Shown here: in pieces, positions 7,273 through 23,895 of the stretch
Layout of the letters: every line of letters starts with the position of its first letter
Position numbering within the stretch: position 1 is the first letter of the stretch
Assembly (NCBI GenBank): GCA_028287285.1
Contig: JAQBPY010000399.1
Span: forward strand, 1 to 48,934
Direction: 5' to 3'
Length of the DNA stretch: 48,934 nucleotides
DNA from: Gemmatimonadota bacterium
GTDB lineage: Bacteria > Gemmatimonadota > Gemmatimonadetes > Gemmatimonadales > Gemmatimonadaceae
Translations under genes and position numbers: made by a program
Notes under the pieces: generated by a model
Seen by the model: the letters and a program-made list of their open reading frames with translations, nothing else
Database searches by the model: none
Told to the model about the DNA's origin: nothing

Positions 7273-7368
7273 ATGACGAAAAAGCCCTTTGTTGCACCCG
7301 TGTTGAAGCCGGAAGCCAGCTTGGTCACCCTCCAGGGTTCTGGAGAACAGCAGCCGTCTCCTGCCTGA
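7273..7368 (+). CDS. RiPP precursor peptide with lasso-type leader (31 residues)
   Basis: A 31-codon gene with a GGAG ribosome binding site six bases before its ATG. The N-terminal part K-K-P-F-V-A-P-V-L fits the lasso-precursor leader pattern YxxPxL, with Phe6 in the Tyr position, Pro9 and Leu11. Thr19 fits the conserved leader Thr that normally lies two residues before the cleavage site. The likely core is therefore Q-G-S-G-E-Q-Q-P-S-P-A, or the same less its Gln. The only acidic core residue is Glu25, at core position 4 or 5, so a normal 7-9-residue lasso ring cannot form. Ser23 and Ser29 are possible phosphate acceptors for the adjacent HPr-kinase-like protein. The gene is directly followed by kinase, PqqD-like and B2 protease genes, which strongly supports its role as their substrate. 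Confidence 0.75.
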   Translation: MTKKPFVAPVLKPEASLVTLQGSGEQQPSPA

Positions 7369-7381
7369 TTTACTGGCAGCC

Positions 7382-7400
7382 TCGGCGCATTGCGCGCCGA
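7382..7400 (+). promoter_or_regulatory. Small hairpin after the precursor gene
   Basis: TCGGCGC pairs with GCGCCGA across a five-base loop, 14 bases after the precursor stop codon. Together with the larger palindrome at 7413 it could protect the short precursor message or attenuate transcription into the enzyme genes. Confidence 0.4.
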
Positions 7401-7412
7401 ACTCCCGATGTC

Positions 7413-7442
7413 GAATCGCCAGCCCAATTGGGCTGGCGATTC
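7413..7442. promoter_or_regulatory. Perfect 30-bp palindrome between precursor and enzyme genes
   Basis: GAATCGCCAGCCC and GGGCTGGCGATTC form a perfect 13-bp stem with an AATT centre, so the whole 30 bp is self-complementary. It lies 26 bases before the kinase start and has no T-tract, so it is more likely an attenuator, mRNA-stabilising stem or protein-binding site than a full terminator. Hairpins between a RiPP precursor gene and its modification genes are a known way to make more precursor than enzyme. Confidence 0.75.
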
Positions 7443-7468
7443 TGCCATGCGAGCCACACCTTGCGCAC

Positions 7469-8395
7469 ATGTCTCACGAAATCACTCTGCGGACCGCACA
7501 TCCCGCAGTTGAACAGCTGGTCAGCGAATGGCTGCACGTGTCCCGCATCGCCCTCCCCAGGCCCGTCACGCTGGACATCGACGTCGGGCCCCTCCCTCCA
7601 CTTCCCTCCGGCTCCAAATTCAATTTCCGGCAGGGAAACGTGGCGGTGAGCAGTGCCGGACCGGGTATGCCGCTGGCCATTGAATGGGGGCCTGGCATGG
7701 GGCGCTGCGTCCTCGACACCAGCAGCACCACGGCCAAGGTCATCATGGAGGAGCGCGCGCTCGAGCGGCCAAACGAGATGCTGCGGCTGTTTCTCATGCT
7801 GGTGTGCACGTTCCTGCTCCGGCGCGTGGGATTTCACCACATCCATGGCGCCGTTCTCCTCTCTCCCCAGAACAAGGGTCTCCTGCTGGTTGGCGTGAGC
7901 GGTTCCGGCAAGTCCACGACCACCGCCCTGCTCGCCAGGCGCGGGTGGCAGGTAGGTACCGACGACATCGCCTTCATGTGCGCCGGAGAACAACCCGGCA
8001 CGACCGACATCGTGCCGTGGCGCGAACGTCTCGCGCTTCACGCCGACTCGGCCTCTGCCATTGGTCATCACGGCGGGGCAGACCTCGAGGCCCGCCAGAA
8101 GATTGGCTGGTTCGTGGAGGACTTGGGCACGACGTGGGTGCAACGGGTCAGGCCGGAGCTGATTGTCCTTCCCACCGCGAGTGCCGATGCTCCTACGAGC
8201 GTCCGTCCGCTGCGCGCGCAGCAGTCGCTCGCGCGCATCATGCCGTCGTCCCCATGGGTGTCGCTCGAAGCGGAGTATGCGGATGAACACCTCGACCTGC
8301 TCACGCGGCTGGTGAAACAGTCACGCTCCTTCGAGGCAACTGTGGGCCGAGACCTGTTTGATCGTCCTGACATCCTGCCGGAGCTGCTTGCATGA
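7469..8395 (+). CDS. HPr-kinase-like protein (RiPP-associated kinase)
   Basis: A 308-residue protein with a C-terminal HPr-kinase-like P-loop domain. The Walker A motif GVSGSGKST spans about residues 142-150. It is preceded by H-G-A at 126-128, as in HPr kinases, and followed by the acidic pair Asp165-Asp166. The N-terminal 110 residues match nothing recognised. In lasso clusters, kinases of this type phosphorylate the C-terminal Ser of the precursor, and similar kinases recur in PqqD-containing 'HprK-related' systems. Here the probable target is Ser23 or Ser29 of the precursor encoded 100 bases upstream. The stop codon overlaps the next start (ATGA), implying translational coupling. Confidence 0.8.
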   Translation: MSHEITLRTAHPAVEQLVSEWLHVSRIALPRPVTLDIDVGPLPPLPSGSKFNFRQGNVAVSSAGPGMPLAIEWGPGMGRCVLDTSSTTAKVIMEERALERPNEMLRLFLMLVCTFLLRRVGFHHIHGAVLLSPQNKGLLLVGVSGSGKSTTTALLARRGWQVGTDDIAFMCAGEQPGTTDIVPWRERLALHADSASAIGHHGGADLEARQKIGWFVEDLGTTWVQRVRPELIVLPTASADAPTSVRPLRAQQSLARIMPSSPWVSLEAEYADEHLDLLTRLVKQSRSFEATVGRDLFDRPDILPELLA

Positions 8396-8664
8396 ATACC
8401 ACGTACTCACGCCATCCCGAGCTGCGGCTGACCGCGGTGGACGGTGAAGGTGTCGTCCTCCACCTGGGTTCACTCACATACTTCACGGTGAATGAAACGG
8501 GGCTGACCATTCTGGACGCGCTGCTGAAGCCCAGGACGCTTGGCGAACTGGTAACGGCCGTGACTGACGAGTACGACGTCAGCGACGCCGAGGCGACGAC
8601 GACGGTGCGCGATTTCATCGGCCGGTGCGTGGAGTCGAAGCTGCTGATCACGGAAGATCGCTGA
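8392..8664 (+). CDS. PqqD-like peptide recognition protein (lasso B1 type)
   Basis: A 90-residue PqqD-family protein, the RiPP recognition element that binds the leader peptide and presents it to the processing enzymes. Typical features are the beta strand V-V-L-H-L-G-S-L-T-Y-F-T-V-N, the N-E-T-G turn, and the C-terminal helical half with a T-L-G-E-L-V and Y-D-V-S pattern ending in L-L-I. Its expected ligand is the FVAPVL segment of the precursor. The start overlaps the kinase stop by four bases, and the following B2 gene overlaps its 3' end. Confidence 0.85.
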   Translation: MNTTYSRHPELRLTAVDGEGVVLHLGSLTYFTVNETGLTILDALLKPRTLGELVTAVTDEYDVSDAEATTTVRDFIGRCVESKLLITEDR

Positions 8665-9086
8665 GCGCAACCGTTCCCATCGGCTGGCGCGTGCGCGCCA
8701 TTCTCGCGACGGCCGTGGTGCCGCCGCTGCTCACGTTCACGTCGTTCGCCCGCCTGGAGCGTGCGCTGTCCACCGCGGCGCGCTGGAGCCGTGCCGGCGC
8801 GCCTGACGACCAGTACGCCGCCAACTGGGTGGACGGTGTGCTGGACCGGCTGCCAAATCCGTGGCTCCGCACCTGCCTCCGGCGCGCATCGGTGCTGTAC
8901 TACCTGCTCCTCTCCGCAGGCAGGTCGGTGGAGCTCTGTATTGGTGTGCGAAAAGACACCAGGGGCGAGCTGCATGCGCATGCGTGGCTGCTGCTGGACG
9001 GGGCCATCTACCTGGAGCCGGCGAATACCCGCGATGTGGCGTCGCAGTTTCAGGAGATTGCGCGCTTTCCGAGCGTGGCAAAGTGA
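8625..9086 (+). CDS. Lasso-peptide B2-type leader protease (transglutaminase-like)
   Basis: A protein of up to 153 residues matching the lasso biosynthesis B2 family, a transglutaminase-fold Cys protease that removes the leader. The probable catalytic Cys is in L-R-T-C-L-R-R-A, the His in H-A-H-A-W-L, and an Asp in L-L-D-G. The pattern of R-C-L-x-R-A followed by I-G-V and A-H-A-W is typical. The start is uncertain: GTG at 8625 overlaps pqqD by 40 bases, while GTG at 8694 would give about 130 residues; neither has a clear ribosome binding site. The gene overlaps the nucleotidyltransferase start by four bases (GTGA). Confidence 0.83.
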   Translation: MRGVEAADHGRSLSATVPIGWRVRAILATAVVPPLLTFTSFARLERALSTAARWSRAGAPDDQYAANWVDGVLDRLPNPWLRTCLRRASVLYYLLLSAGRSVELCIGVRKDTRGELHAHAWLLLDGAIYLEPANTRDVASQFQEIARFPSVAK

Positions 9087-10189
9087 CGTCTGCGAGTCTG
9101 CTCGTGGAAACGCTGCGGATCATACCTGCCGCAAGCGCCCGCGTACTCGCCGATGGCTGGGCACATGCAGACACGGACGCGTTGTTAGCTCTTGCGGAAC
9201 ATGAGGGCGCGGCCATATGGCTGCAGCAGCGGTTGAAGGCGTTGAATATTCGGCTCCCTGATGCCGCTCAAGACCGGCTCAAGGCCAGCACGCGCCCTGC
9301 CCTAGTGAACACGCTGCGCGTAGACGCCGAGGCGAGCGCTTGCCTGGCGAGGTTGTCGGGGGCGGGCATTCCTGCGGTGCCGCTCAAAGGGGCGGCGGTG
9401 CGGCGTCTCGCGGCGCGGGTGCCGCTCATCGACGCGCGGGCGGTGAGCGACGTGGACATTCTGGTGGAAGAGCAGCAGGCCGAACGCGCGTGGAGCATAC
9501 TGTGCTCACAGGGCTACACGGCGCTCAAGGCCACTGGCCCGGAGGATGGCCATCACCTGGCGGCTCTCTCGAGTCCGCTCGGTGTGCCGGTGGAGCTTCA
9601 TGTTTCCACGGTGGCGGCCGTTGCGCCGGCCGAGGCGTGGAGAAGGGCTACCCGTGATGGGACGATGGCGAGCTTTGATGGGACGATGCGGCCCATTCCC
9701 GGCGACACCGAGCTGTTGTGGCACGTGATGTCGCACGCGCTCGTCACGGGCTCGGAACTCGCGCGTGAGGGGCTGCGGCTGCGGTACTGGCTCGATGCGG
9801 CCGCGCTCCTTGCAACGGGTGTGGCAATTGACTGGGAGCGCATTCGGCAGCGGCTGACGTCGGCGGAGGCGCCGCGGCCGGTGCTGTTTCGTGCCTGGCT
9901 CCGCACTGCGGCGCTGTTGGCGGGTGTCGAGCTGCCGTCCGCGGCGCTGGGTGCTCCAGGGCGGCCACTCCATCTCGAGCGTATGCTGGCGTGGCGGCTT
10001 CGGCTCCTGCCAACGTTTCGGCACGACCGCTGGGCGGCAACGCTGTTCGAGGAAGGAACGCGCGGTGAAGCGGGCCTGCCCCTTCATGCCGGGGACGCAG
10101 GCGATACACTTGGTGAGCGCGTGCGACATGCGGCGGCAGGGTGCGCCGCACGAGCATGGTGGATCATCAGGCGACAGGAGAGACCGTGA
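9083..10189 (+). CDS. NTP_transf_5-type nucleotidyltransferase of the RiPP operon
   Basis: A protein of about 368 residues. The GTG start overlaps the B2 stop (GTGA), which is why the longer upstream frame was rejected. It contains P-L-K-G-A-A-V-R-R-L followed by V-S-D-V-D-I-L-V, the Asp-containing core of the NTP_transf_5 nucleotidyltransferase family. These proteins are frequent in lasso and HprK/PqqD clusters, and some act on the peptide or its phosphate. Its exact reaction here is unknown; transfer of a nucleotide or sugar-phosphate to a phosphorylated Ser is a guess. The 3' end overlaps the TonB receptor start by four bases. Confidence 0.8.
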   Translation: MTSASLLVETLRIIPAASARVLADGWAHADTDALLALAEHEGAAIWLQQRLKALNIRLPDAAQDRLKASTRPALVNTLRVDAEASACLARLSGAGIPAVPLKGAAVRRLAARVPLIDARAVSDVDILVEEQQAERAWSILCSQGYTALKATGPEDGHHLAALSSPLGVPVELHVSTVAAVAPAEAWRRATRDGTMASFDGTMRPIPGDTELLWHVMSHALVTGSELAREGLRLRYWLDAAALLATGVAIDWERIRQRLTSAEAPRPVLFRAWLRTAALLAGVELPSAALGAPGRPLHLERMLAWRLRLLPTFRHDRWAATLFEEGTRGEAGLPLHAGDAGDTLGERVRHAAAGCAARAWWIIRRQERP

Positions 10190-12270
10190 AGCATTTTCCA
10201 CGAAGCTGGCGAGTGCTGGCAATGGCCGCTCCCGTGTGGGCGCATGCGCAGGATTCGGTGCGCGTCGCGCTGCCCACGGTTCGGGTCACGGGCACGCGTG
10301 AAGGCCCTCGCGCGCCGCTCGAGCTGCCGTATGCGGTCACGCTCCACCGCCCCGATTCGCTCGCGGCGCTCCGGCGCACCGGGGTCGACGAGCTCCTGTT
10401 TGGCGTGCCTGGCGTGGCGCTGGCCAACCGCCAGAATCCGGCGCAGGATCCTCGCGTGAGCATCCGTGGATTTGGCGCACGATCGGCGTTTGGCGTGCGG
10501 GGCGTGCGGGTGCTGCAGGATGGTGTTCCCGTCACGCTGCCTGATGGACAAACGCCTGTTGATGCGCTCGATCTCGAGGGCACGGACCGCGTGGAAGTGG
10601 TGCGCGGGAGTGCGTCATCGCTGTACGGCAATGCGGCCGGCGGCGTGATCGACCTGCGGTCGGCCCTCGCGTCGCGGCTGTTCACTCCGTATGCGCGCAT
10701 CGTTGCCGGTGCTAACACGCCAACCGTTTCTGCCGCCGGTGCCTCTGGAACGGTGCGTGATGTTGGCATCACGTCGTCGTTAACGCGCATTGTTGGGCGC
10801 GGCTATCGCGACTACTCGGACCAGCGTGTCACCCGCGCGGCCATGCGAATGGTGCTCGCCGGTTCCGACGGTGATGGACCGGCGCCACTCGCACTTTCCG
10901 CACGCATCTCGGACGTGTCGCGCGCGGAAAGTCCGGGCGCGTTGACACGCGCGCAGTTCGACGCGAATCCGCAGCAGTATGACCCGCAGTCGTACCTGAA
11001 GGGGGCGAGCAAGACCGTTCAGCAGGAGGATGTGTCACTCGTGGCAGCACGCGCGCTGGGCGCGGGTGCACGCATCGATGCGTCGGTATTTGGTGGCGCG
11101 CGGGTGCTCAACAACCCCACGACCCAGGCGATCATCGACGTGAAGCGCGCGAGTGGCGGTGCATCGATGAAGGTGAGCGAGCACGGAGCGCTCGACGGGC
11201 ACGACGCGCGCATCTCGGCCGGTGTGGACGCGCAGTGGTTGAATGATGACCGCCAGGAATACACCAACTGCATTGGTGTTACCACGTGTGCCGGCGGCGT
11301 TACCGTACGGGGCACGCAGAACAAGAACCAGCGCGAGCTGGTGGGCAGTGTGGGGCCGTACGCGCGCGCGGAGCTTGCGCTGCTGCCAACGGTGCTGGCG
11401 TCGGCGGGGGTGCGCAGCGACGCGGTGAATTTTCGCCTGCGCGACCGCCTGATCACGGCCACCAATCCGGATGATTCCGGCGAGCGAACGTTGAATGCGG
11501 TGAGTCCGTCTGCGGGGCTCGTGTGGCGTGCAACGCCGTTGTGGTCGGTGTATGGCAGTGTTTCGTCGAGCTTCGATACGCCGACTACCACGGAGCTGGG
11601 CAACAAGGAAGACGGGTCATCGGGCATCAATCCGAGTCTGCAGCCGCAGCGTGCCACGAATCTCGAGGTGGGGAGCAAGGGATTCTTCGTGGGCACGGGG
11701 GTGCGGTGGGATATCGCCGTCTTCGAGGCGAACGTGCACGACGAGCTCGTGCCCTTCGACATTCCCAACGGCAACGGGCGCCGGTTCTATCGGAACGCGG
11801 GACGCACGGTACGCCGCGGTGGTGAGCTTGGCGTGGATGCGGAATCGGGGCCTGTGGCACTGCATGCGGCGTACGAGTACTCGCACTATCGCTACGTGAG
11901 CTACGTGGTGGGCACCACCTCGTATGCCGGCCGCCGCATTCCGGGCATTCCGGAGCAGGCGTTGATGACGTCCGCCTCGTTGAACGCGCTCGACATGCGA
12001 TTTTCCGCAACGGCCGATCTGGCAGGGCCGGCAGACGTGGACGACGCGAATACCGCGCAGGCGCCGGGCCGAGCGGTGTTTGGGCTGGCCGTGTCGCGGG
12101 AGGTGAGTGTTGGCGGCGCGCGGTTCTCCCCGCTGGTGGCGCTGCAGAATGTGGGCGGCGTTCGCTACGCAGGGAGCCTGAGCGTGAATGCCACGGCGGG
12201 CAAGTTCTATGAGCCCGCGCCGGGCCGGACGTTGCTCGTTCGGGTGACCGTGGGGGCGATGGGCAGGTGA
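10186..12270 (+). CDS. TonB-dependent outer-membrane receptor
   Basis: A 694-residue TonB-dependent receptor. The GTG start has an AGGAG ribosome binding site five bases upstream and overlaps the nucleotidyltransferase stop (GTGA). The N-terminal 22 residues form a signal peptide ending in A-H-A-Q. A TonB-box-like stretch (T-V-R-V-T-G-T-R) precedes the plug domain with R-V-S-I-R-G-F-G-A-R and V-E-V-V-R-G-S-A-S-S-L-Y-G-N; the rest is a 22-strand-type barrel. The plug segment V-T-L-P-D-G-Q-T resembles ferric citrate receptors, so siderophore import is possible. Its tight coupling to RiPP enzymes suggests uptake or export of the modified peptide, or of a metal complex of it. Confidence 0.88.
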   Translation: MKHFPRSWRVLAMAAPVWAHAQDSVRVALPTVRVTGTREGPRAPLELPYAVTLHRPDSLAALRRTGVDELLFGVPGVALANRQNPAQDPRVSIRGFGARSAFGVRGVRVLQDGVPVTLPDGQTPVDALDLEGTDRVEVVRGSASSLYGNAAGGVIDLRSALASRLFTPYARIVAGANTPTVSAAGASGTVRDVGITSSLTRIVGRGYRDYSDQRVTRAAMRMVLAGSDGDGPAPLALSARISDVSRAESPGALTRAQFDANPQQYDPQSYLKGASKTVQQEDVSLVAARALGAGARIDASVFGGARVLNNPTTQAIIDVKRASGGASMKVSEHGALDGHDARISAGVDAQWLNDDRQEYTNCIGVTTCAGGVTVRGTQNKNQRELVGSVGPYARAELALLPTVLASAGVRSDAVNFRLRDRLITATNPDDSGERTLNAVSPSAGLVWRATPLWSVYGSVSSSFDTPTTTELGNKEDGSSGINPSLQPQRATNLEVGSKGFFVGTGVRWDIAVFEANVHDELVPFDIPNGNGRRFYRNAGRTVRRGGELGVDAESGPVALHAAYEYSHYRYVSYVVGTTSYAGRRIPGIPEQALMTSASLNALDMRFSATADLAGPADVDDANTAQAPGRAVFGLAVSREVSVGGARFSPLVALQNVGGVRYAGSLSVNATAGKFYEPAPGRTLLVRVTVGAMGR

Positions 12271-12281
12271 ATTAGGTACTA

Positions 12282-12294
12282 CCCCCCCCACCCC
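12282..12294 (+). repeat. C8 homopolymer tract before the protease lipoprotein gene
   Basis: Eight consecutive C residues (12282-12289), then A and four more C, lie where a ribosome binding site would be expected, 6-18 bases before the ATG at 12300. Such tracts can change length by slippage. No other ribosome binding site is evident. Confidence 0.6.
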
Positions 12295-12299
12295 ACCGC

Positions 12300-13724
12300 A
12301 TGCGGCTCGCGTCGCTGTTGTTCGTCGTCTGTGCCGGTGTCGTCATCGCGTCGTGCAGGACCGGCGCGCCCCTCCCTCCCGCAGACGAGATCGTGGAAGG
12401 ACGCACGCTGCTGCCGGTCGTCGTCGACACGGTGGACGGCCCGGAAGCGATCTCCGTCAACCCCGGCAAGTGGACTGTCCGTCATAACGCGGACGAGGTG
12501 CTCGACTTCTGGAGTGCCATCTCCATCCTCGACCTGCCTGGCGCGGAGCACTCGGCCAGGTCGGTGGAAGAGCGCACGTTTGCCCTTGCGTTGCGCACGC
12601 TGATGCGGAGCAACCCGGAGGATGCGGCCATCGCGTTTCGTGCACTGCACCTGCAGGCACTCGATCCCATGGTGCGCAGCCGCTCGCGCGTGGGGCTGAC
12701 GATGGCGCTCTCCTGGCAATCGGACTGGCCGTCGCTCGCGGGCATCGGTGTGGATCCTGATACAGCCGACGGCTCCGATCCACTGGCCGTGCAGGCAGGC
12801 GTTGAGCGGTGGGGGCGCGCGCTGTCCGCAGTGCCTGCGCCCGTGATCGACATTCCGGAACTGCCAACCACGATCCCCATGCGCCGCAGCGCGTTCGGGA
12901 CGCCCGTGGTCACCGTGGAGATCAATGGCCAGCCGCACGAATTCTGGCTCGATACCGGCGCCAGCATGACCCTGTTGTCCGATGAGGTTGCGGTGAAGGC
13001 GGGCGTCAAGCTCGCCGCACGTGATACGCTCGCGCTGAGTGTGGTGGCGGGACACATCCCGGCGCGCGCGGTCTTCGTCGATTCACTCAGGATGGGTCCC
13101 GTGCTCGCGCACGGACTTGGCGCCGCATTGGTGAACAAAGGTGCACTCCGCCTGGATCATCGCATGGTCAACGGCGTGCGTGAAGCCGTGGACATCGACG
13201 GCGTGATTGGCACGGATCTCATCAGGAAGCTCGATCTCGTGATCGATGCACGAGCCGGCACGATCACCGTGCGCAAGCCGCGCCGCGACCCGCAGATCGT
13301 GCCGAATTTGTTCTGGGTGGGCTACCCGGTCGTGCGCCTCGTGACCAAGGATGGGCGGCCGGTGCTATTGGGTCTCGATACCGGTGCCGAAGTCACGTAC
13401 ATCACCACGGCATTGCTCAAGAAGCAGCCGAGGACGTCGGTCGCGGTGCGACATGGCTCGATAGGCGGACTCGGGACGCAGGAGCACACCACCGAGTGGG
13501 TGGCGCGGCAGATCTCGCTCAGCGATGGCGGTTATGCCATCGGGCTCACGAACGTGCCGGTGGCACCCGAGCGACGGTGGACGTTCGTGAACTTCGATGG
13601 CGTGATTGGATCGGACGTGGCGCTGGCGTCGCGGCTGCACCTGGATTTCGTGAACGGGGTGTTCGACGTGCGGCGCAGCGCGACCAATCCGCTGGGAGGA
13701 ATCAACGTCACCATCGCTCACTGA
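12300..13724 (+). CDS. Lipoprotein with two retropepsin-like aspartic protease domains
   Basis: A 474-residue protein. The signal V-V-I-A-S-C gives a lipobox Cys at residue 19, predicting a lipid-anchored protein. A helical N-terminal region runs to about residue 180. Two retropepsin-like domains follow: W-L-D-T-G-A-S at Asp218 and G-L-D-T-G-A-E at Asp360, each with its D-T-G-A flap-type motif. Each domain later carries a G-V-I-G-(T/S)-D strand (about 300 and 435). A single chain can thus supply both catalytic Asp residues, as in pepsin, unlike dimeric retroviral proteases. It begins 29 bases after the TonB receptor and probably belongs to the same operon, where it could trim or destroy the peptide. 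It ends nine bases from the convergent M28 peptidase gene. Confidence 0.82.
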   Translation: MRLASLLFVVCAGVVIASCRTGAPLPPADEIVEGRTLLPVVVDTVDGPEAISVNPGKWTVRHNADEVLDFWSAISILDLPGAEHSARSVEERTFALALRTLMRSNPEDAAIAFRALHLQALDPMVRSRSRVGLTMALSWQSDWPSLAGIGVDPDTADGSDPLAVQAGVERWGRALSAVPAPVIDIPELPTTIPMRRSAFGTPVVTVEINGQPHEFWLDTGASMTLLSDEVAVKAGVKLAARDTLALSVVAGHIPARAVFVDSLRMGPVLAHGLGAALVNKGALRLDHRMVNGVREAVDIDGVIGTDLIRKLDLVIDARAGTITVRKPRRDPQIVPNLFWVGYPVVRLVTKDGRPVLLGLDTGAEVTYITTALLKKQPRTSVAVRHGSIGGLGTQEHTTEWVARQISLSDGGYAIGLTNVPVAPERRWTFVNFDGVIGSDVALASRLHLDFVNGVFDVRRSATNPLGGINVTIAH

Positions 13725-13733
13725 CCGCTCGGA

Positions 13734-15110
13734 TTACCGGGCCAGCGGCGTGCGTGGCAAGCGCTCCGGCATCTCCGCAAGCACGTAGGCGTAAATTGCC
13801 ATCACGGCAACACACTGGGCAACTTCGCGTGGATTGAGCTTGTCGGGCGTGTCGCCGTTGGTGTGATGGAACCAGAAATATCGGCTGCCGTCCACCTCGA
13901 GCCCGGCGCCCGGAACTCCCGCAGCGAGCAGTGGACCGATGTCGGCCTCGCCTCCGCCCTTCACCACGGAATCCGCGCCGATGCGCGACAGCAGCGGCGC
14001 AATGCGCTTGAGCATCGCGATGGCCTCGTCCGTTCCAACGGCAGCGATGCCCGACGGCCGAAACACACCGTTGTCCGACTCGAGCGCGAACACGTGCTTG
14101 TCGACGTCGGCTTTGTGCGCGGCAAGATATCCCAGCCCGCCGCGCGTGCCGTTTTCTTCATTCGTCCATCCGACTACACGGATGGTACGCCGTGGCCTGA
14201 TGCCGAGTGTCTTCATGAGGCGAATGGCTTCCCACGCCGCCACGACTCCGCCGGCGTCATCCATCGCGCCCTGGCCCACGTCCCAGGAATCGATGTGACC
14301 GCCCATCACGACCACTTCATCCGGCAGCTCGCGTCCACGAATCTCGGCAACGAGGTTGCGCGATGGTGCATCGGGCAGCTGCTTCGCACTCATCTTGAGT
14401 GTGACCGTGATGGCTTGCCCGCGATCCTGCATGCGGTGCAGCAGCATGGCATCCTCGAGGGTGACGGCTGCCGCGGGAATCTTCTTGACGGTGCTGTCGT
14501 AGCGGAGCGCGCCGGTGTGCGGTGAGTTGATGGAGAATGGGCCGATGGTGCGAACGAGCATCGCGACGGCGCCAACTTTTGCCGCCGCTGAGGCACCGAG
14601 CCCGCGGTACGCAACGGTCTGGCCATACTCGGTGAAGGGAACGTCGAACAGCACGATCTTGCCCTTGGCCGCAGCCGCGTGCTTCGTGAGATCGTCGAAG
14701 CTGTTGACGACCAGCACCGGCGCGGTGATTCCGGCCGCCGGTGTCGCGACACTCATGCCGAGACCGAGGATGGTCATCGGTTTCCGCCGTGGCGTGATGA
14801 GGTCGAGCGATTCCGCGCCGCGGACCCAGTGCGGCACCATGACCGGCTCGCCGCGCACGTTCTCCAGGCCGTCGGCCTTCATCTTTGCGAGCACCCAGTC
14901 AATGGCGCGCTCGAGGTTGTCGGTGCCGCTGAGGCGGTTGCCGAAGGTGTCCGTGAACTCCGCGATGCGGTTCCACGCCGCGCTGTCCTTCAGCGCGGCG
15001 TCGATGAGCCGGTCGGTGGTCGCTCGGTAGGTGGCGGCGTTCTGTGCGTGCGCGGTGAGCGGTGCAAGGAGGAAACCGCCAATGGCGGCAATGCGTAGGG
15101 CTGTTCGCAT
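13734..15110 (-). CDS. Secreted M28 family aminopeptidase with PA domain
   Basis: A 458-residue zinc peptidase of the M28 family. The signal peptide (about 1-23) ends in A-H-A-Q. A protease-associated region lies at about 130-240. The catalytic metal motifs are visible: G-G-H-I-D-S-W-D, then G-A-M-D-D-A-G-G, then N-E-E-N-G and E-S-D-N-G, and finally H-T-N-G-D near the C-terminus. These supply two His, two Asp and the general-base Glu. The longer frame beginning at 15209 was rejected because the signal peptide starts at 15110. The gene converges on the lipoprotein protease with a nine-base gap. Confidence 0.9.
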   Translation of the reverse strand: MRTALRIAAIGGFLLAPLTAHAQNAATYRATTDRLIDAALKDSAAWNRIAEFTDTFGNRLSGTDNLERAIDWVLAKMKADGLENVRGEPVMVPHWVRGAESLDLITPRRKPMTILGLGMSVATPAAGITAPVLVVNSFDDLTKHAAAAKGKIVLFDVPFTEYGQTVAYRGLGASAAAKVGAVAMLVRTIGPFSINSPHTGALRYDSTVKKIPAAAVTLEDAMLLHRMQDRGQAITVTLKMSAKQLPDAPSRNLVAEIRGRELPDEVVVMGGHIDSWDVGQGAMDDAGGVVAAWEAIRLMKTLGIRPRRTIRVVGWTNEENGTRGGLGYLAAHKADVDKHVFALESDNGVFRPSGIAAVGTDEAIAMLKRIAPLLSRIGADSVVKGGGEADIGPLLAAGVPGAGLEVDGSRYFWFHHTNGDTPDKLNPREVAQCVAVMAIYAYVLAEMPERLPRTPLAR

Positions 15111-15214
15111 AGTGGTGGGCGAGTATGAAATGTGCCTTGGCAAGGTATCGCCGGTTTCAGGTATCGAGTAAGTACGGAGCAGCAATTGGCAGGACCAACC
15201 CTTCCGCACCCGCC

Positions 15215-15811
15215 ATGCTCGAGTTTCTGCAGCACGCCGTGGAGCGATACGGCTATTTCGCTATTGCACTGATCGTCACGCTCGAGGGATTCGGGCTTCC
15301 GCTGCCCGGCGAGACGGCGGTGGTGTCGGCGGCGGCGTTTGCCTCGCGCGGCTCGATGAGTGTTGTGGGGGTCGCCATTGCGGCAGCGGTTGGTGCGTTG
15401 CTTGGCGGTTCGGGAGGCTACTGGATCGGGCGCATTGGCGGACGTCCGCTGCTGCTGCGCTACCAGCACCTGATCCACATTGACGGAAAGCGCATCGCCA
15501 GGGCCGAGGCATACTTCAAGCGGCATGGGGTGAAGACTGTCTTCTTCGCGCGGTTCATTGCCCTGCTGCGAATTTTCGGCTCGCTCTTCGCCGGCGTCGC
15601 GCACATGCCCTTTGTCACCTTCACGCTCGTGAATCTCGCAGGTGGCGTACTCTGGGCCGCAACCTTCAGTGCACTTGGCTACTCCTTTGGCCGCAATCTT
15701 CCCCTGCTCGAGGACTGGCTCGGTGAGATCAGCCTTGCGCTCTCGGTGATGGTGGTGATCGCGATTGTGTGGTTCTGGCGCAGGAACAGGACACAGCAGC
15801 GGGCCGATTGA
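15215..15811 (+). CDS. DedA family membrane protein
   Basis: A 198-residue integral membrane protein of the DedA/SNARE-associated family. The pattern E-G-F-G-L-P-L-P-G-E-T begins at about residue 28 and is a family hallmark. It is followed by G-G-S-G-G-Y-W-I-G-R and F-F-A-R-F-I-A-L-L-R-I-F-G, then two further hydrophobic segments and a basic tail. DedA proteins are implicated in envelope stability and undecaprenyl-phosphate or lipid flipping. The ATG at 15215 gives the usual family length. The next gene is convergent with no spacer. Confidence 0.88.
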   Translation: MLEFLQHAVERYGYFAIALIVTLEGFGLPLPGETAVVSAAAFASRGSMSVVGVAIAAAVGALLGGSGGYWIGRIGGRPLLLRYQHLIHIDGKRIARAEAYFKRHGVKTVFFARFIALLRIFGSLFAGVAHMPFVTFTLVNLAGGVLWAATFSALGYSFGRNLPLLEDWLGEISLALSVMVVIAIVWFWRRNRTQQRAD

Positions 15812-16975
15812 TCAGAACTTGTGCATGAGCTCCCGATCGAGGAAATCCGCGATCACCTTGAATGCGAGCTGGCCACCGAGCCCCGCCGGCGCGAGGTCGA
15901 ATCCATGCTCGGCCCATGGCAGCTCCACGGCGACAACAGGCACGTTCGCTGAACGGAGGTCAGCCGCCGCGGTACGATTGAATTCCGGCTTTACGACATG
16001 GTCCCGTCCAGCATAGACCAGCAGCGTTGGCGGCAGGCCGCGGTGCACCCAGCTCGAGGGTGATGCCATGCGGTAGTTTCGCGGCTTCTCCTCTGGCGTT
16101 CCATTCATGAAATCGTGGAGCACCGCGCGCACGTCGATGGGATTCGGGAATGGAAGATTGCGATAGCCTTCCACGAGGTTGTAGGGCGCGTAGAGTGCGA
16201 CAACGGCCTTTACCGGCAGTGCGCCTTCGGCATAAGAGCTCAACTCGGCGAGATGCCCGCCGGAGGAGCGGCCCAGCACCGCTACGCGATCACGGTCAAT
16301 GCCCCATGCGTCTGCGGAGTCGCGCAGGATGAGCATGGCGAGCCGGATATCGTCGAGCTGTGCGGGGAAGTGCGATTGCGGAGCATGCCGGTAGTCGATG
16401 GCGGCAACCGCATACCCGCGTGCCGCGAGGGCACGACTCACGTTGGCAGCCTGTGACGGGTCGCCGCCGCGCCACGCACCGCCGTAAATCACGATGACCA
16501 CAGGACGCGTCATGTGCGGCGTGGGGGTGTAGAAGCGCATGCTCAGCCGCGTGAGATCGGCGGCCGGATAGTTGATGGTCCGTTCGTCGACATTGCGGCT
16601 CGACGGCAAGCCGCGAATGGCGGTCCACAGCGAAAATGAAGCGGGGCCGTCCACATTTCCGATCTGCTCGGCGGCGGCCGCCGCGACGCGGGTGTACTGC
16701 GTGAGAGGCCGTACGGCAACGAGTGCCGCAATGACCAGGAGCGTGAGCATCGCGCCACGCACCGCACCGCGCCCGCGCAGCGCGCGGTTCACGGGCAGGC
16801 ACCACAGCAGGTCGAAAATGGCGAGAAAGGGAGAGTATTCGCGTGCGCCCACCGCGAGCGCAAACAGCGCCATCGTAAAGGGCGGGATGATCACCATCGC
16901 GGAAAGGAAGATCAGCAGCGCGGCGACGGCCAGCGTTGCAACAACGGCGGTTCGGGAGCTGCTCAGGTGCGGCAT
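15812..16975 (-). CDS. Membrane-anchored alpha/beta hydrolase (esterase-like)
   Basis: A 387-residue protein with several N-terminal membrane segments (about residues 11-60 and 76-90) and a C-terminal alpha/beta-hydrolase domain. The oxyanion region is I-Y-G-G-A-W-R-G-G (about 163-171). The nucleophile motif G-R-S-S-G places Ser237. The acid is in Y-A-G-R-D-H-V and the His in A-E-H-G-F-D. The fold is like BD-FAE or hormone-sensitive-lipase-type esterases. A mature secreted or membrane-tethered esterase is likely; substrate unknown. Divergent to the DUF983 gene. Confidence 0.82.
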   Translation of the reverse strand: MPHLSSSRTAVVATLAVAALLIFLSAMVIIPPFTMALFALAVGAREYSPFLAIFDLLWCLPVNRALRGRGAVRGAMLTLLVIAALVAVRPLTQYTRVAAAAAEQIGNVDGPASFSLWTAIRGLPSSRNVDERTINYPAADLTRLSMRFYTPTPHMTRPVVIVIYGGAWRGGDPSQAANVSRALAARGYAVAAIDYRHAPQSHFPAQLDDIRLAMLILRDSADAWGIDRDRVAVLGRSSGGHLAELSSYAEGALPVKAVVALYAPYNLVEGYRNLPFPNPIDVRAVLHDFMNGTPEEKPRNYRMASPSSWVHRGLPPTLLVYAGRDHVVKPEFNRTAAADLRSANVPVVAVELPWAEHGFDLAPAGLGGQLAFKVIADFLDRELMHKF

Positions 16976-17065
16976 GGGTCGAATGTGGTCGTTCGAGACT
17001 GCCGAGGCAACGGTTCAGGGAAAGCCGGACTGACGCTGCACGGCAATTGCCTTACGTTTCGTCCT

Positions 17066-17494
17066 ATGCCGGCACGCCCGTCGAACTTCGTGATGCTCGT
17101 ACGCTCGATCTTGCGGCGATGTCCGAATTGTGGGGGACGCAACATCTTCGCGACGTACACGGAGTTGCGTGAGAGCTGTCCGCGCTGCGGGTTGCGTCTG
17201 CACCGCGGCGAGAGCGACTACTTCATTGGTGCGTACCTGCTCAACCTGGTGGCGGTGGAGCTGCTGTTCGCCCTGTTGCTCGGTATCGTGATCGTCGTGA
17301 CGTATCCGGACACGCCGTGGGTATTTCTGCAATGGGGCGGCGTTGCCCTCATGGCGGTGGGTGCGGTGCTCTGCTATCCGTTTGCGAAAAGCATCTGGCT
17401 TGCGGCTGACCTGATCTTTCGTCCCATGACGGAAGAAGAGCTCGCCTGGCATCGTACCGGTGGGGCCGCGGATCGGGAGCTGCCGCATCTGTAG
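17066..17494 (+). CDS. DUF983 family zinc-ribbon membrane protein
   Basis: A 142-residue protein with two CPxCG-type zinc knuckles (C-P-N-C-G near residue 18 and C-P-R-C-G near residue 36) and two predicted membrane segments (about 52-74 and 85-103). This is the DUF983 layout. The start at 17066 is preferred over the in-frame start upstream, which overlaps the divergent hydrolase gene. Function unknown. Some members lie near cytochrome oxidase genes, but none is present here. Confidence 0.8.
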   Translation: MPARPSNFVMLVRSILRRCPNCGGRNIFATYTELRESCPRCGLRLHRGESDYFIGAYLLNLVAVELLFALLLGIVIVVTYPDTPWVFLQWGGVALMAVGAVLCYPFAKSIWLAADLIFRPMTEEELAWHRTGGAADRELPHL

Positions 17495-17516
17495 GGCAGG
17501 ACGACAAAGCGCTCCG

Positions 17517-19370
17517 TCACCTGCGTGCCGGTGCGAGCGGCAGCACGATATGGGATGGATAGGCAGCGCTATGGTGGATGGTGTTGTCCGCTGTGATCAT
17601 CCGGCGGTTCCTGCCTAGCGGCTCTCCCGTGTTCGGGTTTACATCGAAGCGCGGAAAGTTGCTGCTCGAGATGTCCACACGAATGCGATGCCCTTTCTTG
17701 AAGACGTTGGCCGTGGGAAACGGATCGATGCTGAAGGGATAGACCTTTCCCGGCTGGAGCATCACGGCATGGTCGCGCGTGGCACGATATCGGCCCCGAA
17801 TGATCGCATCCGTGATGTTGAGGTCGAAGCCGCCGGGCCACGCGTCGCTCGGCGGGTAGACGTCAATGAGCTTGGCGGTAAAGTCCGTGTCCGTGCGGTT
17901 GGAGGATGCATGGAGGACCAGGTGAATGGGTCCGATGACTTCCATGTCTTCGGTGAGCGGCTCCGTCTGGAAGACGACGATGTCGGCACGGGAGCGCAGT
18001 GGCAGGTATGGCACCTGCGACGGCGGAAAGCGCACGCCCTCCCGCTGGTCGTATGCACCGTCCTTCAGCCGTGCCGAGGCGCCGCCTCCAATGGTGGGGA
18101 CGGGGTGGCGAGGATCGAAGGTGAAAGTGGTGCTCGACGATTTTTCCGTAGGCTTCTCGCGCGCGAGTGATCCGTTCGCGTGGAAGTAGTACGGCACGTT
18201 CGTTGTGCCGGCGAGCGGCCATTCGTTGGCGCTACGCCAGTAGCCGCCGTGAAAGAGGCGGCCCGCGCTATCCTTGTGCCCGTCACCCGTACCCATGACG
18301 AAAAGCTTGACGGCGGCATCCTTTTCAACGGGCGTGGAAAGCCCCTTCAGGTAATGATCGAACCAGCGAAGATGGAAGTCGCCGTCGAAGTCGGTAATGG
18401 CGGCGTCTGCGCCGTAGGACACGTCGCCCGCGTACGATAGTGTGTCGCCGTGATGGACCCACGGACCCACGAGAAGCCGCTGCGGTGACTTCTTGATCTT
18501 CGCGAGGCCGGCGTAGTTCTGGAAGGTGCCGGCGAGGAAGATGTCGTACCACCCGCCAATCTGGAGCATGGGGATGTCGGACGTCTGCACGTAATGCTCC
18601 GACCAGTTCATCATTGGCTCCTTCCAGAATGCGTCGTAGTCCGCGTGCTCGAAGAAGTCGATGTACCATCCCTCGTACAACGGTGCGACCGAGAGTGGAT
18701 TCAAGCCGCGGCGCATGGGCTGGCGGTCGTACCACGTTTCAACCTTCTCCTGCTCCAGCAGCAGCTTTCGCACGCTCGGGTTTGGTGCATCGGCCGCAAG
18801 CTGGCTCCAGGCCCAGGTGAGCTGGCGACCCATCTCATAGGCGCCGCGATAGCGAACACCATGATCCCAGGCGTTGGACATGCCGCCCATGTTGATGACC
18901 GCCGTTTTGAGCGCCGGCGGATGGAGCTGCGCGGCGCCGGCTTCCATGTGGGCCGCGAATGACGTGCCCCACATGCCGATGGAGCCATTGGAGTATGGCT
19001 GCGTCGCGAGCCATTCAATGACGTCGTAGCCATCGGTGGCGTCGAGAGGCTGCACCTTCAGAAAATTGCCGTCGGACTTGTAGCGGCCGCGGATGTCCTG
19101 CACTGCCACCACATATCCATGTCTCGCCAGGTATTCCGCCTGGGTCCTGGCGGTGGTTTTGTCGTACGGGGTGCGCTGGAGCAGCACGGGCAATTTCTCG
19201 CTCACGGCAACGCCATTGCGCGCGGGCCGGTACACGTCCGTCGCCATGCGTTTTCCGTCGCGCGTGGGAATCATGAGATTCCGCTCGGCGAGTACGACGT
19301 CGTAGCCCTGGGACCGAGCTGGTACGGCGCACGAGACCAGAAGCACGGCAGCGATGAGGCGTGGTTTCAT
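17517..19370 (-). CDS. CocE/NonD family hydrolase (S15 peptidase-like)
   Basis: A 617-residue protein with an N-terminal signal peptide (M-K-P-R-L-I-A-A to A-R-S-Q). It matches the CocE/NonD hydrolase family, which includes cocaine esterase and X-Pro dipeptidyl-peptidases. The nucleophile is in W-G-T-S-F-A-A; the usual motif is G-x-S-Y, so Phe here is a small change. A catalytic His-bearing G-P-W-V-H-H-G-D stretch lies at about residues 335-345. The C-terminal third is the jelly-roll domain with D-I-V-V-F-Q-T-E and L-D-L-N-type strands. The longer start at 19481 was rejected because the signal peptide begins at 19370. Confidence 0.85.
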   Translation of the reverse strand: MKPRLIAAVLLVSCAVPARSQGYDVVLAERNLMIPTRDGKRMATDVYRPARNGVAVSEKLPVLLQRTPYDKTTARTQAEYLARHGYVVAVQDIRGRYKSDGNFLKVQPLDATDGYDVIEWLATQPYSNGSIGMWGTSFAAHMEAGAAQLHPPALKTAVINMGGMSNAWDHGVRYRGAYEMGRQLTWAWSQLAADAPNPSVRKLLLEQEKVETWYDRQPMRRGLNPLSVAPLYEGWYIDFFEHADYDAFWKEPMMNWSEHYVQTSDIPMLQIGGWYDIFLAGTFQNYAGLAKIKKSPQRLLVGPWVHHGDTLSYAGDVSYGADAAITDFDGDFHLRWFDHYLKGLSTPVEKDAAVKLFVMGTGDGHKDSAGRLFHGGYWRSANEWPLAGTTNVPYYFHANGSLAREKPTEKSSSTTFTFDPRHPVPTIGGGASARLKDGAYDQREGVRFPPSQVPYLPLRSRADIVVFQTEPLTEDMEVIGPIHLVLHASSNRTDTDFTAKLIDVYPPSDAWPGGFDLNITDAIIRGRYRATRDHAVMLQPGKVYPFSIDPFPTANVFKKGHRIRVDISSSNFPRFDVNPNTGEPLGRNRRMITADNTIHHSAAYPSHIVLPLAPARR

Positions 19371-19430
19371 GGGTCGAAAGTGTGGCGGTCCTGGCTGGGC
19401 GACAAGAGCGCGGCGAAGGGCCTGCCTTCC

Positions 19431-19463
19431 CTGGTCGTCATGAACGTAGCGAAAGACCTGCTC
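19431..19463 (-). repeat. Dispersed repeat overlapping the GNAT 5' end
   Basis: On the minus strand it reads GAGCAGGTCTTTCGCT then ACGTTCATGACGACCAG, one base different from the consensus core. The apparent ATG at 19440 in the GNAT reading frame lies inside this repeat, so that start is suspect. Confidence 0.7.
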
Positions 19464-19481
19464 TTGCCTGACATTACCCAC

Positions 19482-20015
19482 GTGCTAGTCAGACCGCTGT
19501 CCGGCCTGCGCGCCATCCGCCTGCACTTCGCCATTGCGAAGCCGGGTGACGCTGCCGCAATCGCATCGCTCCGCAACGCGGCGGCGGCGGCGCTCACCGA
19601 TTTGTTCGGGCGTGGGCACTGGTCCGGCGAAACAACCGAGCGTGGTGTCACATTCAACATGCGCCACGCACAGCTCTGGACCGCCTGGCGCGGCCGTTCC
19701 ATCGTCGGCACCTTCCGCTTAACGACGAAAAAGCCATGGGCAATTGACCGGGCCTACTTTGCCAGGTCGCACTGCCCGCTGTATCTCACCGACATGGCGA
19801 TAAGTCCCCCACTTCAGGGGCAAGGCATCGGACGTCGATGTCTCGCCAGAGCTGCAGAGATCGGGCGCGGCTGGCCCGCAGACGCCATTCGCCTGGACGC
19901 ATACGATGCCGAAGCCGGCGCGGGAGCGTTTTATTCCAGATGTGGATTCGAGGAAGTGGGCCGAGTATCCTATCGCGGCACACCGCTGGTGTACTACGAG
20001 CAGTTGATTGGTTAA
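19482..20015 (+). CDS. GNAT family N-acetyltransferase
   Basis: A protein of about 177 residues with the GNAT acetyl-CoA-binding motif (Q-G-Q-G-I-G-R-R) preceded by M-A-I-S-P and followed by the C-terminal D-A-Y-D-A-E-A-G-A-G-A-F-Y-S-R-C-G-F motif. N-terminal A-I-A-K-P-G-D-A-A-A-I-A-S-L-R resembles the first GNAT strand and helix. The start is uncertain: ATG at 19440 lies inside a dispersed repeat and would add about 14 repeat-encoded residues, so GTG at 19482 is preferred. Acceptor substrate unknown. Confidence 0.75.
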   Translation: MLVRPLSGLRAIRLHFAIAKPGDAAAIASLRNAAAAALTDLFGRGHWSGETTERGVTFNMRHAQLWTAWRGRSIVGTFRLTTKKPWAIDRAYFARSHCPLYLTDMAISPPLQGQGIGRRCLARAAEIGRGWPADAIRLDAYDAEAGAGAFYSRCGFEEVGRVSYRGTPLVYYEQLIG

Positions 20016-20039
20016 CCATCCGCCTTCCGGAGAATCGGC

Positions 20040-20246
20040 ATGACGTACTCAGGTCCCATCAACGATCCAGGCGTGCCCCGGCAGACTGCCATGGGGCGGT
20101 CCGTCAGGGCGGCCAAAGCCGGTGCGAGCTTCGGCTCCGCACTCGCCATCGCGATCTCGTGGAGCGAGCATCACTCCATTCTGTGGGCGATCTTCCAGGG
20201 CTTCTGTTCCTGGGTTTACGTACTCTACTACGCGCTCACGCGGTAG
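20040..20246 (+). CDS. Small membrane protein, 68 residues
   Basis: Short protein with a GGAG ribosome binding site seven bases before its ATG, which supports it as a real gene. The first half is polar and basic (R-S-V-R-A-A-K-A-G-A). The second half is one hydrophobic segment with the aromatic pattern S-W-S-E-H-H-S-I-L-W-A-I-F-Q-G-F-C-S-W-V-Y. No family named. It follows the GNAT gene by 24 bases and may be co-transcribed with it. Confidence 0.6.
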   Translation: MTYSGPINDPGVPRQTAMGRSVRAAKAGASFGSALAIAISWSEHHSILWAIFQGFCSWVYVLYYALTR

Positions 20247-20255
20247 GGCGCTCCG

Positions 20256-23114: not shown

Positions 23115-23236
23115 GGAATGCGGGTGGGGAAAGCGTGAACGACGACAGCTGCTGACGACTTCCTGAATAGTGGGTCCGTCGGCCGCGGTAAACAACCTTC
23201 AATGAGACACCCGGCGTCCGGGTGACGTTGCACACT

Positions 23237-23890
23237 ATGGTTCAAGGCACATGGACTGACGTCGATGCGTACATCGCCGAACAGATGATTCCCGCCGACG
23301 CGGCGCTTGGCGCGGCACTCGAGGCGAGCACCGCGGCCGGCCTGCCCGCCATCGCAGTATCGCCCCCGCAGGGCAAAATGTTGAACATCCTCGCACGAGC
23401 CACCGGGGCGAAATCAATACTCGAGATCGGTACGCTGGGCGGCTATTCCACCATCTGGCTGGCTCGCGCACTGCCCGCTGGCGGACGGCTCGTCACCCTG
23501 GAGTGTGATCCGCGCCATGCCGAGGTCGCGGCGGCCAATATTGCACGCGCCGGCCTCGCAGACCGTGTCGATATCCGCATTGGCCGCGCGATCGATACGC
23601 TGCCCACGCTTGCGGGTCCGTTCGATTTCATCTTCATCGACGCGGACAAGCAGAGCATTCCGGAGTATTTCGAGTGGGCGGTAAAGCTGACGGAGCCGGG
23701 AGCGCTGATCATCGTGGACAATGTCATCCGCAACGGCGCGGTTGCGGATTCCACGTCGACGGACGCCATGGTGCTCGGCGTACGGCGATTCAATGCGCTC
23801 GTCGCCAGGGACCCGCGCGTTACGGGCACGACGATTCAGACGGTGGGCGGCAAAGGGTATGACGGGCTGTGTTTCCTGCTGCGGGTCTAG
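23237..23890 (+). CDS. O-methyltransferase, class I SAM-dependent (CCoAMT/catechol type)
   Basis: A 217-residue SAM-dependent methyltransferase of the caffeoyl-CoA or catechol O-methyltransferase class. It has P-P-Q-G-K-M-L-N-I-L-A, the SAM-binding E-I-G-T-L-G-G-Y-S-T (about 60), F-D-F-I-F-I-D-A-D-K (about 133) and I-I-V-D-N-V-I-R-N-G (about 156), in which Asp and Asn ligate the divalent metal. ATG at 23237 is chosen over GTG at 23222. It is divergent to the M16 genes. Acceptor unknown. Confidence 0.87.
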   Translation: MVQGTWTDVDAYIAEQMIPADAALGAALEASTAAGLPAIAVSPPQGKMLNILARATGAKSILEIGTLGGYSTIWLARALPAGGRLVTLECDPRHAEVAAANIARAGLADRVDIRIGRAIDTLPTLAGPFDFIFIDADKQSIPEYFEWAVKLTEPGALIIVDNVIRNGAVADSTSTDAMVLGVRRFNALVARDPRVTGTTIQTVGGKGYDGLCFLLRV

Positions 23891-23895
23891 CGTGG

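What the first reader, a model, noticed from the sequence alone, without database searches (positions are those of the whole stretch)
7273..13724. Lasso-type RiPP operon without a lasso cyclase
Seen: a 31-codon gene with a YxxPxL-type leader (F-V-A-P-V-L) and a Thr before the core, followed by HPr-kinase-like, PqqD-like, B2 protease, nucleotidyltransferase, TonB receptor and aspartic protease genes, with four-base overlaps joining kinase to PqqD, B2 to NTase and NTase to receptor. Known: lasso peptides need an Asn-synthetase-like cyclase (C) plus B1 and B2. No such gene or ABC exporter is in 49 kb, and the core lacks Asp/Glu at position 7-9. Inference: the peptide is a linear, kinase- and nucleotidyl-modified product, possibly a metallophore-like or signalling molecule taken up by the TonB receptor.
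Basis: partly seen in the sequence, partly recalled or inferred. Interest (0 to 1): 0.9.

Follow-up and report, generated by a model that had tools for sequence, protein, structure and literature searches.

The report
Lasso-like peptide operon lacking cyclase
Some bacteria of the Gemmatimonadota group carry a conserved gene set that looks like the machinery for making knotted lasso peptides but without the knot-forming enzyme, so it probably makes very short, straight, phosphate-tagged peptides instead.

Summary
Window 7273-10189 is a cassette: 31-aa precursor, HPrK-like kinase, PqqD/B1-type RRE, lasso B2 peptidase, nucleotidyltransferase. It recurs in 13 of 288 genomes of the order, with precursors found in 12; the 13th contig is cut. 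The 18 precursors share one leader (F(-17) and L(-6) 18/18, T(-2) 16/18). Their cores vary, are 4-12 aa in 14 of 18, and all have Ser within the first six residues.
The window genome has a separate lasso cluster, but each of the 12 other cassette genomes has one lasso B2, the cassette's own, and four have no full-length Asn-synthetase match. Most cores could not form a threaded ring.
Most likely product: a short linear peptide, phosphorylated on a core Ser, perhaps further modified on that phosphate, and released by B2; the chemistry is inferred. The closest known kind is the Bacillota "linear polyphosphorylated peptides" (PMC13381572), which use a SipW-like peptidase; none of 13 genomes has one over cut-off.
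The TonB receptor and aspartic protease also occur in congeners without the cassette, so uptake by that receptor is not supported.

The parts
7273..7368 (+). precursor peptide (31 aa); leader F-V-A-P-V-L; core about QGSGEQQPSPA or SGEQQPSPA
   Evidence: homologous leader in 17 further peptides of 11 other genomes
7413..7442 (+). GC-rich hairpin between precursor and kinase (13-bp stem); possible attenuator or mRNA-stabilising stem favouring precursor expression
   Evidence: z = -6.2 for 7369-7468; near-identical stem at the same place in L084, L025, L026, L076
7469..8395 (+). HPrK-like peptide Ser kinase (308 aa); H126, K148, D165, D166 conserved
8392..8664 (+). PqqD-family discrete RRE (lasso B1 type, 90 aa)
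   Evidence: profile matches TbiB1 and TfuB1 structures
8625..9086 (+). lasso B2-type cysteine leader peptidase (start GTG 8625, or CTG 8661); Cys72 and His107 (counted from 8661) invariant
9083..10189 (+). NTP_transf_5 nucleotidyltransferase (368 aa); K102 and D123-x-D125 invariant in 13 of 13
10186..12270 (+). TonB-dependent receptor (PqqU-like, below cut-off); neighbour shared with cassette-free congeners, not a core part
12300..13724 (+). aspartic protease (Asp_protease_2); goes with the receptor rather than with the cassette

Best explanation
This is a dedicated, cyclase-free RiPP pathway built from lasso-peptide parts. The PqqD/B1 protein binds the F(-17)xxPxL(-12) leader. The HPrK-like kinase phosphorylates, perhaps several times, a Ser near the start of the core. 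The nucleotidyltransferase then probably modifies that phosphate (a nucleotide or a sugar), and the B2 cysteine peptidase cuts after the T(-2)-L(-1) pair. The result is a linear modified peptide, usually of 4-12 residues. Shown here: the conserved cassette, leader, spacing, catalytic residues, core Ser and lack of a linked cyclase. Inferred from characterised homologues (BsfK/B1/B2, PadeK, LppK, PsmN): every chemical step. The export route and biological role are unknown.
For: 13 of 288 order genomes carry the kinase clade (E <= 2.1e-71; the next match is a fragment of the same G005 gene at 9.4e-46, then 1.4e-24). Kinase-PqqD-B2-NTase follow one another in 12 of 13; in G108 the kinase with its precursor lies about 26 kb from the other three. 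Precursors were found in 12 of 13 (18 peptides). Mean pairwise identity is 57% in the leader and 13% (ungapped) in the core; F(-17) 18/18, P(-14) 15/18, L(-12) 17/18, L(-6) 18/18, T(-2) 16/18; Ser in core positions 1-6 in 18/18. The register -17 to -12 with T, I or V at -2 is that of lasso leaders (passages of PMC10368454). One lasso B2 per genome in 12 of 12; no full-length Asn_synthase match in G126, G108, G130, G131. Active-site residues are invariant. Precedent: BsfK phosphorylates core Ser3 with B1's help; LppK phosphorylates Ser3 of a linear peptide without a cyclase; PsmN adds hexose to the phospho-Ser.
Against: No product is known. The window's own precursor is an outlier: by register its -2/-1 residues are Gln-Gly, or else its leader is two residues shorter; its congener G005 has Val-Ala there. 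A 4-aa core (STII, G009) is extremely short for a B2 product. Three longer cores (G108, G072, G088a; 27, 40 and 19 aa) have Asp/Glu at position 8, 9 or 7 and so could in principle form a ring. In the LPP study deletion of the nucleotidyltransferase LppN changed nothing in the heterologous host. No dedicated exporter was found in the window. The assemblies are 80-98% complete, and the cassette contigs of G130, G131 and G197 are only 3.5-5.3 kb, so a linked cyclase beyond the contig end cannot be excluded in those three. The B2 tree is poorly resolved and does not separate the cassette from a lasso B2 (L029), so a single cyclase-free ancestor is not shown.
Confidence: 0.75

Rival explanations
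1. A lasso cyclase encoded elsewhere acts in trans, so the product is a lasso peptide.
For: The window genome carries a B2 and an Asn-synthetase-type cyclase side by side on contig C276; 8 of the 12 other cassette genomes have some long Asn-synthetase match; 3 of 18 cores have Asp/Glu at 7-9 with a tail behind it.
Against: Four cassette genomes (93, 93, 86 and 80% complete) have only partial Asn_synthase matches of at most 29.1 bits and 76 of 354 positions. None of the 12 has a second lasso B2. 14 of 18 cores are 4-12 aa; 13 of 18 lack Asp/Glu at 7-9 and in 2 more it is the last residue.
Confidence: 0.04
2. A decaying lasso cluster that lost its cyclase and no longer makes anything.
For: The genes resemble the kinase-and-nucleotidyltransferase type of lasso cluster minus C; the window's leader is slightly aberrant.
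Against: Open frames and invariant catalytic residues in B2 (14 of 14 rows), nucleotidyltransferase (13 of 13) and kinase (16 of 16) across two families; leaders conserved while cores vary; four tandem precursors in G040, each with its own ribosome-site-like sequence.
Confidence: 0.05
3. The short ORF is not a precursor but an attenuator leader peptide: ORF plus hairpin control the kinase operon.
For: A strong hairpin follows the ORF in the window and several other loci.
Against: The conserved part is the lasso-type RRE-binding motif in lasso register; G040 has four tandem copies, and neither of the two inter-precursor spacers tested there, nor the one tested in G088, has a significant hairpin; in G126 the two ORFs lie 2.1-2.2 kb from the kinase.
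Confidence: 0.06
4. A TonB-imported metallophore or signalling peptide.
For: Receptor and cassette overlap by GTGA in the window; the receptor is PqqU-like (350 bits vs a cut-off of 1200); one distant precursor (G072) has a His/Gly-rich core.
Against: Receptor and protease lie together in 5 of 6 cassette-free congeners that have the receptor, and were not found beside the 10 cassettes outside the genus, 6 of which hold 2.7 kb or more downstream.
Confidence: 0.06

Closest known systems
Linear polyphosphorylated peptides (LPP; Popov et al. 2026, PMC13381572; Bacillota)
   Same: Discrete RRE, HprK-like kinase, NTP transferase, lasso-like leader, no macrolactam cyclase, Ser near the core N terminus
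   Different: LPPs use a SipW-like signal peptidase (none of 13 genomes over cut-off), a YxxPxVLxHQxIxFETxxS leader, 35-200 aa precursors and an MsbA-like exporter; here a lasso B2, an F..P.L..EASL..TL leader and mostly 4-12 aa cores, in Gemmatimonadota
Phosphorylated lasso peptides: Bsf (PMC10368454) and paeninodin/pseudomycoidin type
   Same: Precursor, kinase, B1, B2 and (Bsf, pseudomycoidin) nucleotidyltransferase; leader register -17 to -12; T, I or V at -2
   Different: They have cyclase C, and cores with Asp/Glu at 7-9 and a threaded tail (general features recalled; Bsf cyclase, ABC transporter and Asp8 seen)
HPr-rel-A system (NCBIfam TIGR04352, TIGR04353; name from the library; one search found no paper using these names)
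   Same: HPrK-related kinase plus PqqD-like protein
   Different: Both window proteins score far below the cut-offs (41.6 vs 200; 22.2 vs 35)

Membership tests
Lasso peptide cluster | B1 (RRE) and B2 (cysteine leader peptidase) | tested here: met
Lasso peptide cluster | Asn-synthetase-like macrolactam cyclase in the cluster | tested here: not met
   none beside the cassette in 13 genomes (contigs of G130, G131, G197 are short)
Lasso peptide cluster | Core with Asp/Glu at 7-9 and a tail to thread | tested here: not met
   met by 3 of 18 cores (G108, G072, G088a); the window's core lacks it
Lasso peptide cluster | [Y/W]xxPx[L/V/I] leader motif with T(-2) | tested here: inconclusive
   register and T(-2) kept (16/18), but the aromatic is Phe in 18/18; in the window T(-2) fits only if the leader is two residues shorter
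LPP | RRE, HprK-like kinase and NTP transferase without cyclase | tested here: met
LPP | SipW-like archaeal-type signal peptidase I | tested here: not met
   0 of 13 genomes over cut-off (one weak match, 27 bits vs 51.85, in G088)
LPP | YxxPxVLxHQxIxFETxxS precursor motif | tested here: not met
   against the motif quoted
LPP | MsbA-like exporter in the cluster | tested here: inconclusive
   none among 37 scanned window ORFs; not scanned in the other loci
LPP | (Poly)phosphorylation of core Ser | not testable with these tools
   Ser present in core 1-6 in 18 of 18
Lasso-tailoring HprK-like kinases | His-Lys-Asp-Asp catalytic motif and HPrK-like fold | tested here: met
   H126, K148, D165, D166 invariant in 16 rows (equated with the published motif by position in the P-loop kinase, not by alignment to ThcoK); fold matches to PEPCK and HPrK
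HPr-rel-A system | TIGR04352 and TIGR04353 above cut-off | tested here: not met

The most novel reading that the evidence does not exclude
A new class of 'micro-RiPPs': ribosomal peptides of only 4-12 residues in which the lasso B2 peptidase has been repurposed for linear products, and in which a Ser-phosphate is extended by a nucleotide or sugar, giving a peptidyl-phospho-nucleotide or glycan comparable in size to microcin C (recalled comparison). F(-17) would be a third RRE address label, beside the Tyr and Trp labels known to keep LPP and paeninodin pathways apart, letting the host run a lasso pathway in parallel.
Probability: 0.25. Interest if true: 0.85.

Novelty: new variant of a known kind. 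Interest (0 to 1): 0.68.

Why it matters
It would show that cyclase-free relatives of lasso machinery exist in at least two forms: in Bacillota with a signal-peptidase-like leader peptidase, and in Gemmatimonadota with the lasso B2 peptidase kept. That would make the kinase-plus-nucleotidyltransferase step, not the knot, the common denominator of these systems. The very short cores are cheap to synthesise, so the open question of what the NTP_transf_5 enzymes of phosphorylated lasso clusters do becomes directly testable on peptides of 4-12 residues. Genome-mining rules that require a cyclase would miss such systems.

Tried and rejected
TonB uptake as part of the system: rejected after finding receptor plus protease in cassette-free congeners.

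Cyclase in trans: judged unlikely.

The first nucleotidyltransferase scan of genome contigs gave nothing; the PqqD profile gave 11 loci, 9 of them this cassette. These nine are contigs also reached through unnamed handles and were not counted twice; the other two (Acidobacteria, Proteobacteria; 28 and 34% identity) were not pursued.

The B2 tree was too weakly supported: 3 of 21 inner branches are starred. One of these holds six rows of the window's family, including the second B2 of the window genome. The other cassette rows fall in a weak fork together with a lasso B2 (L029), L028 and L109.

B2 profile against PDB: no match. Nucleotidyltransferase profile against PDB: none, but its model matches minimal nucleotidyltransferases. 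PADLOC: nothing convincing for the cassette.

Hairpins are not significant in every spacer: of 200 shuffles, L082 7, L080 12, L079 20 and L083a 88 reached the observed energy, and two inter-precursor spacers in L027 183 and 184.

Precursor not testable in G131, whose contig starts 122 bp before the kinase.

A flaw: of the nine Asn-synthetase query rows, reused as a profile, one (L002) was translated on the wrong strand. The absence claims rest on PF00733, not on it.

The leader regexes were written after seeing the peptides. The expectation for Ser (2.5e-9) assumes independent peptides, which they are not.

Full report
What is there. The window is contig C36 of a 6.1 Mb, 84% complete genome. 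Named records holding the same cassette are Gemmatimonadota MAGs. At 7273-10189 lie, on the plus strand, a 31-aa ORF, an HPrK-like kinase, a PqqD-type RRE, a lasso B2 peptidase and an NTP_transf_5 nucleotidyltransferase. A TonB receptor and an aspartic protease follow. The PqqD-B2 junction would need a CTG start to be of that kind, so GTG 8625 is likelier.

Conservation. A profile of five kinases found matches at E <= 1e-3 in 92 of 288 genomes of the order. They split sharply: 13 genomes at E <= 2.1e-71 (seven genera, two families), then a further fragment of the G005 gene (9.4e-46), then 1.4e-24 and weaker. In 395 genomes drawn across the phylum, overlapping with the first set, no further member of the clade appeared; the best other match was 1.0e-25. 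In 12 of the 13 genomes the order kinase-PqqD-B2-nucleotidyltransferase is kept without interruption; in G130 the contig ends inside the nucleotidyltransferase. In G108 the kinase with its precursor sits at 56 kb and PqqD-B2-nucleotidyltransferase at about 29.5 kb of the same contig. In G005 the cassette is split over two contigs whose ends overlap by 126 identical bases.

Precursors. Eighteen short ORFs with the same leader lie upstream of the kinase in 12 of the 13 genomes: one in eight genomes, two in G130, G126 and G088, four in G040. In G126 they lie 2.1-2.2 kb from it. The thirteenth contig (G131) begins 122 bp before the kinase. Counting from F as -17, all 18 have F(-17) and L(-6), 17 have L(-12), 15 have P(-14), 16 have E(-9) and 16 have T(-2). 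The two without T(-2) are the window (Gln-Gly by register; T(-2) if two residues are missing from its leader) and its congener G005 (Val-Ala). Mean pairwise identity is 57% in the leader against 13% in the core. Core lengths are 4, 6, 7, 7, 8, 8, 8, 9, 9, 9, 9, 9, 10, 12, 17, 19, 27 and 40. Ser occurs within core positions 1-6 in 18 of 18. With the Ser share of the operon's proteins (6.5%) a single peptide would have it with probability 0.33; the peptides are related, so this is a hint and not a test. Over 802 kb of partly redundant fetched loci the strict leader pattern, written after the fact, has 18 distinct hits, all cassette precursors.

No lasso ring. None of the 15 Asn_synthase matches of the window's genome is on C36; one (C276) lies beside a different B2 and PqqD-like gene and is a separate lasso cluster. 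In the 12 other cassette genomes there is exactly one lasso B2, the cassette's. No Asn_synthase match lies near it; the nearest long ones on the same contig are about 79 kb (G072) and 105 kb (G040) away. G126, G108, G130 and G131 have only partial matches, at most 29.1 bits and 76 of 354 positions; they are 93, 93, 80 and 86% complete. The contigs of G130, G131 and G197 are short (3.5-5.3 kb), so linkage beyond their ends is unseen. Five of 18 cores have Asp/Glu at 7-9: in two it is the last residue, in three (G108, G072, G088a) a tail follows, so a ring is not excluded by sequence there.

Intact enzymes. B2: Cys72, His107 and Glu119 are invariant in 14 of 14 rows, 13 cassette genomes plus the second B2 of the window genome (the role of the third residue is recalled by spacing, not tested). 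Nucleotidyltransferase: K102, D123 and D125 are invariant in 13 of 13 rows; its model (mean pLDDT 87.7) matches minimal nucleotidyltransferases such as MenT1 (6.9e-4) and, more weakly, ANT(2''). Kinase: H126, K148, D165 and D166 are invariant in 16 of 16 rows, which fits the His-Lys-Asp-Asp set reported for lasso kinases (passage of PMC9266682); its model (pLDDT 91.3) matches PEP carboxykinases best and HPr kinases next. PqqD: its profile matches the lasso B1 structures TbiB1 and TfuB1.

Hairpin. A strong hairpin separates precursor and kinase (z = -6.2 in the window, 0 of 200 shuffles as stable), with near-identical stems in L084, L025, L026 and L076. It is weaker in L082, L080 and L079, and absent from the three inter-precursor spacers tested (one in L083, two in L027). 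It may raise precursor over enzyme expression, or be read as an attenuator.

Receptor and protease. The receptor has relatives of 65-74% identity in 8 of the 9 other genomes of its genus (the ninth has only a 35% match), and in the six of these without the cassette it sits next to the aspartic protease in five. Beside the 10 cassettes outside the genus neither was found, but only six of those loci hold 2.7 kb or more downstream. In the two congeners with the cassette both follow it in the same order, but the receptor does not overlap the nucleotidyltransferase. So the two genes look like neighbours, not members.

Mechanism. Characterised homologues give the steps. In Bsf, B1 speeds phosphorylation of core Ser3 by BsfK and is needed for B2 cleavage; the natural residue at -2 is Ile (passages of PMC10368454). 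In LPP, LppK polyphosphorylates Ser3 of a peptide that stays linear, and deleting LppN changed nothing (sections of PMC13381572 read: introduction, two results sections and discussion, plus passages). In pseudomycoidin, PsmN adds hexoses to the phospho-Ser (passage of PMC9266682). Applied here: RRE binding, Ser phosphorylation, extension of the phosphate, B2 release. None of these steps was tested.

Compared with what is known. The cassette is not a lasso cluster (no linked cyclase, mostly unsuitable cores) and not an LPP cluster as defined (no SipW-like peptidase over cut-off in 13 of 13 genomes; other leader motif; B2 instead). The LPP paper describes LPPs and paeninodins as restricted to Bacillota, and its main text does not mention Gemmatimonadota. 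Eight searches of the open-access library listed no paper whose title or shown abstract describes a cyclase-free B2 cassette or this family; only four papers were opened (PMC13381572, PMC10368454, PMC9266682, PMC7298704), and most subscription journals and preprints are not held. I therefore call it a new variant of a known kind.

Noticed in passing
L022:8454-10709 (G000 contig C276): The window's genome has a separate lasso-type cluster: PqqD-like, B2 (93 bits to NF033537) and an Asn-synthetase-type cyclase running to the contig end; no precursor was identified there.
   Followed up: partly
L023 (G000 contig C160): A second B2 of the cassette's type (about 55% identical) stands next to a diverged HPrK-like kinase on the other strand, a weak NTP_transf_5 protein and a MacB/FtsX permease; no precursor with the cassette leader was found there.
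   Followed up: partly
L065, L068, L069, L071-L075, L089, L094: A second family of leaders, mostly W..P.L..HASLT.LTQ followed by varied cores, lies near more distant HPrK-like kinases, with PqqD detected in 7 of these 10 loci. For 4 of the 10 the genome was searched for Asn_synthase (G149, G029, G208, G000) and none lay on the kinase contig. Of 12 genomes with distant kinases or B2, 11 had none on the best-kinase contig (G284 did; Asn_synthase also beside a kinase on G011 C255 and beside the B2 on G028 C50). Several contigs are short. It may be another cyclase-free family.
   Followed up: partly
L081:1858-2058: The precursor of G072 has a 40-aa core rich in Gly-His repeats, which suggests metal binding.
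   Followed up: no
window 13734-25218: A run of minus-strand hydrolase genes downstream: M28, BD-FAE esterase, S15, two M16 and an M20 peptidase.
   Followed up: no
window 10186-12270: The receptor is most similar to PqqU (PQQ receptor; 350 bits, cut-off 1200) and is present in 9 of 10 genomes of the genus, the window's included.
   Followed up: partly
window 12300-13724: The aspartic protease matches PADLOC candidate PDC-M08B (2.3e-10) over a short stretch only.
   Followed up: no
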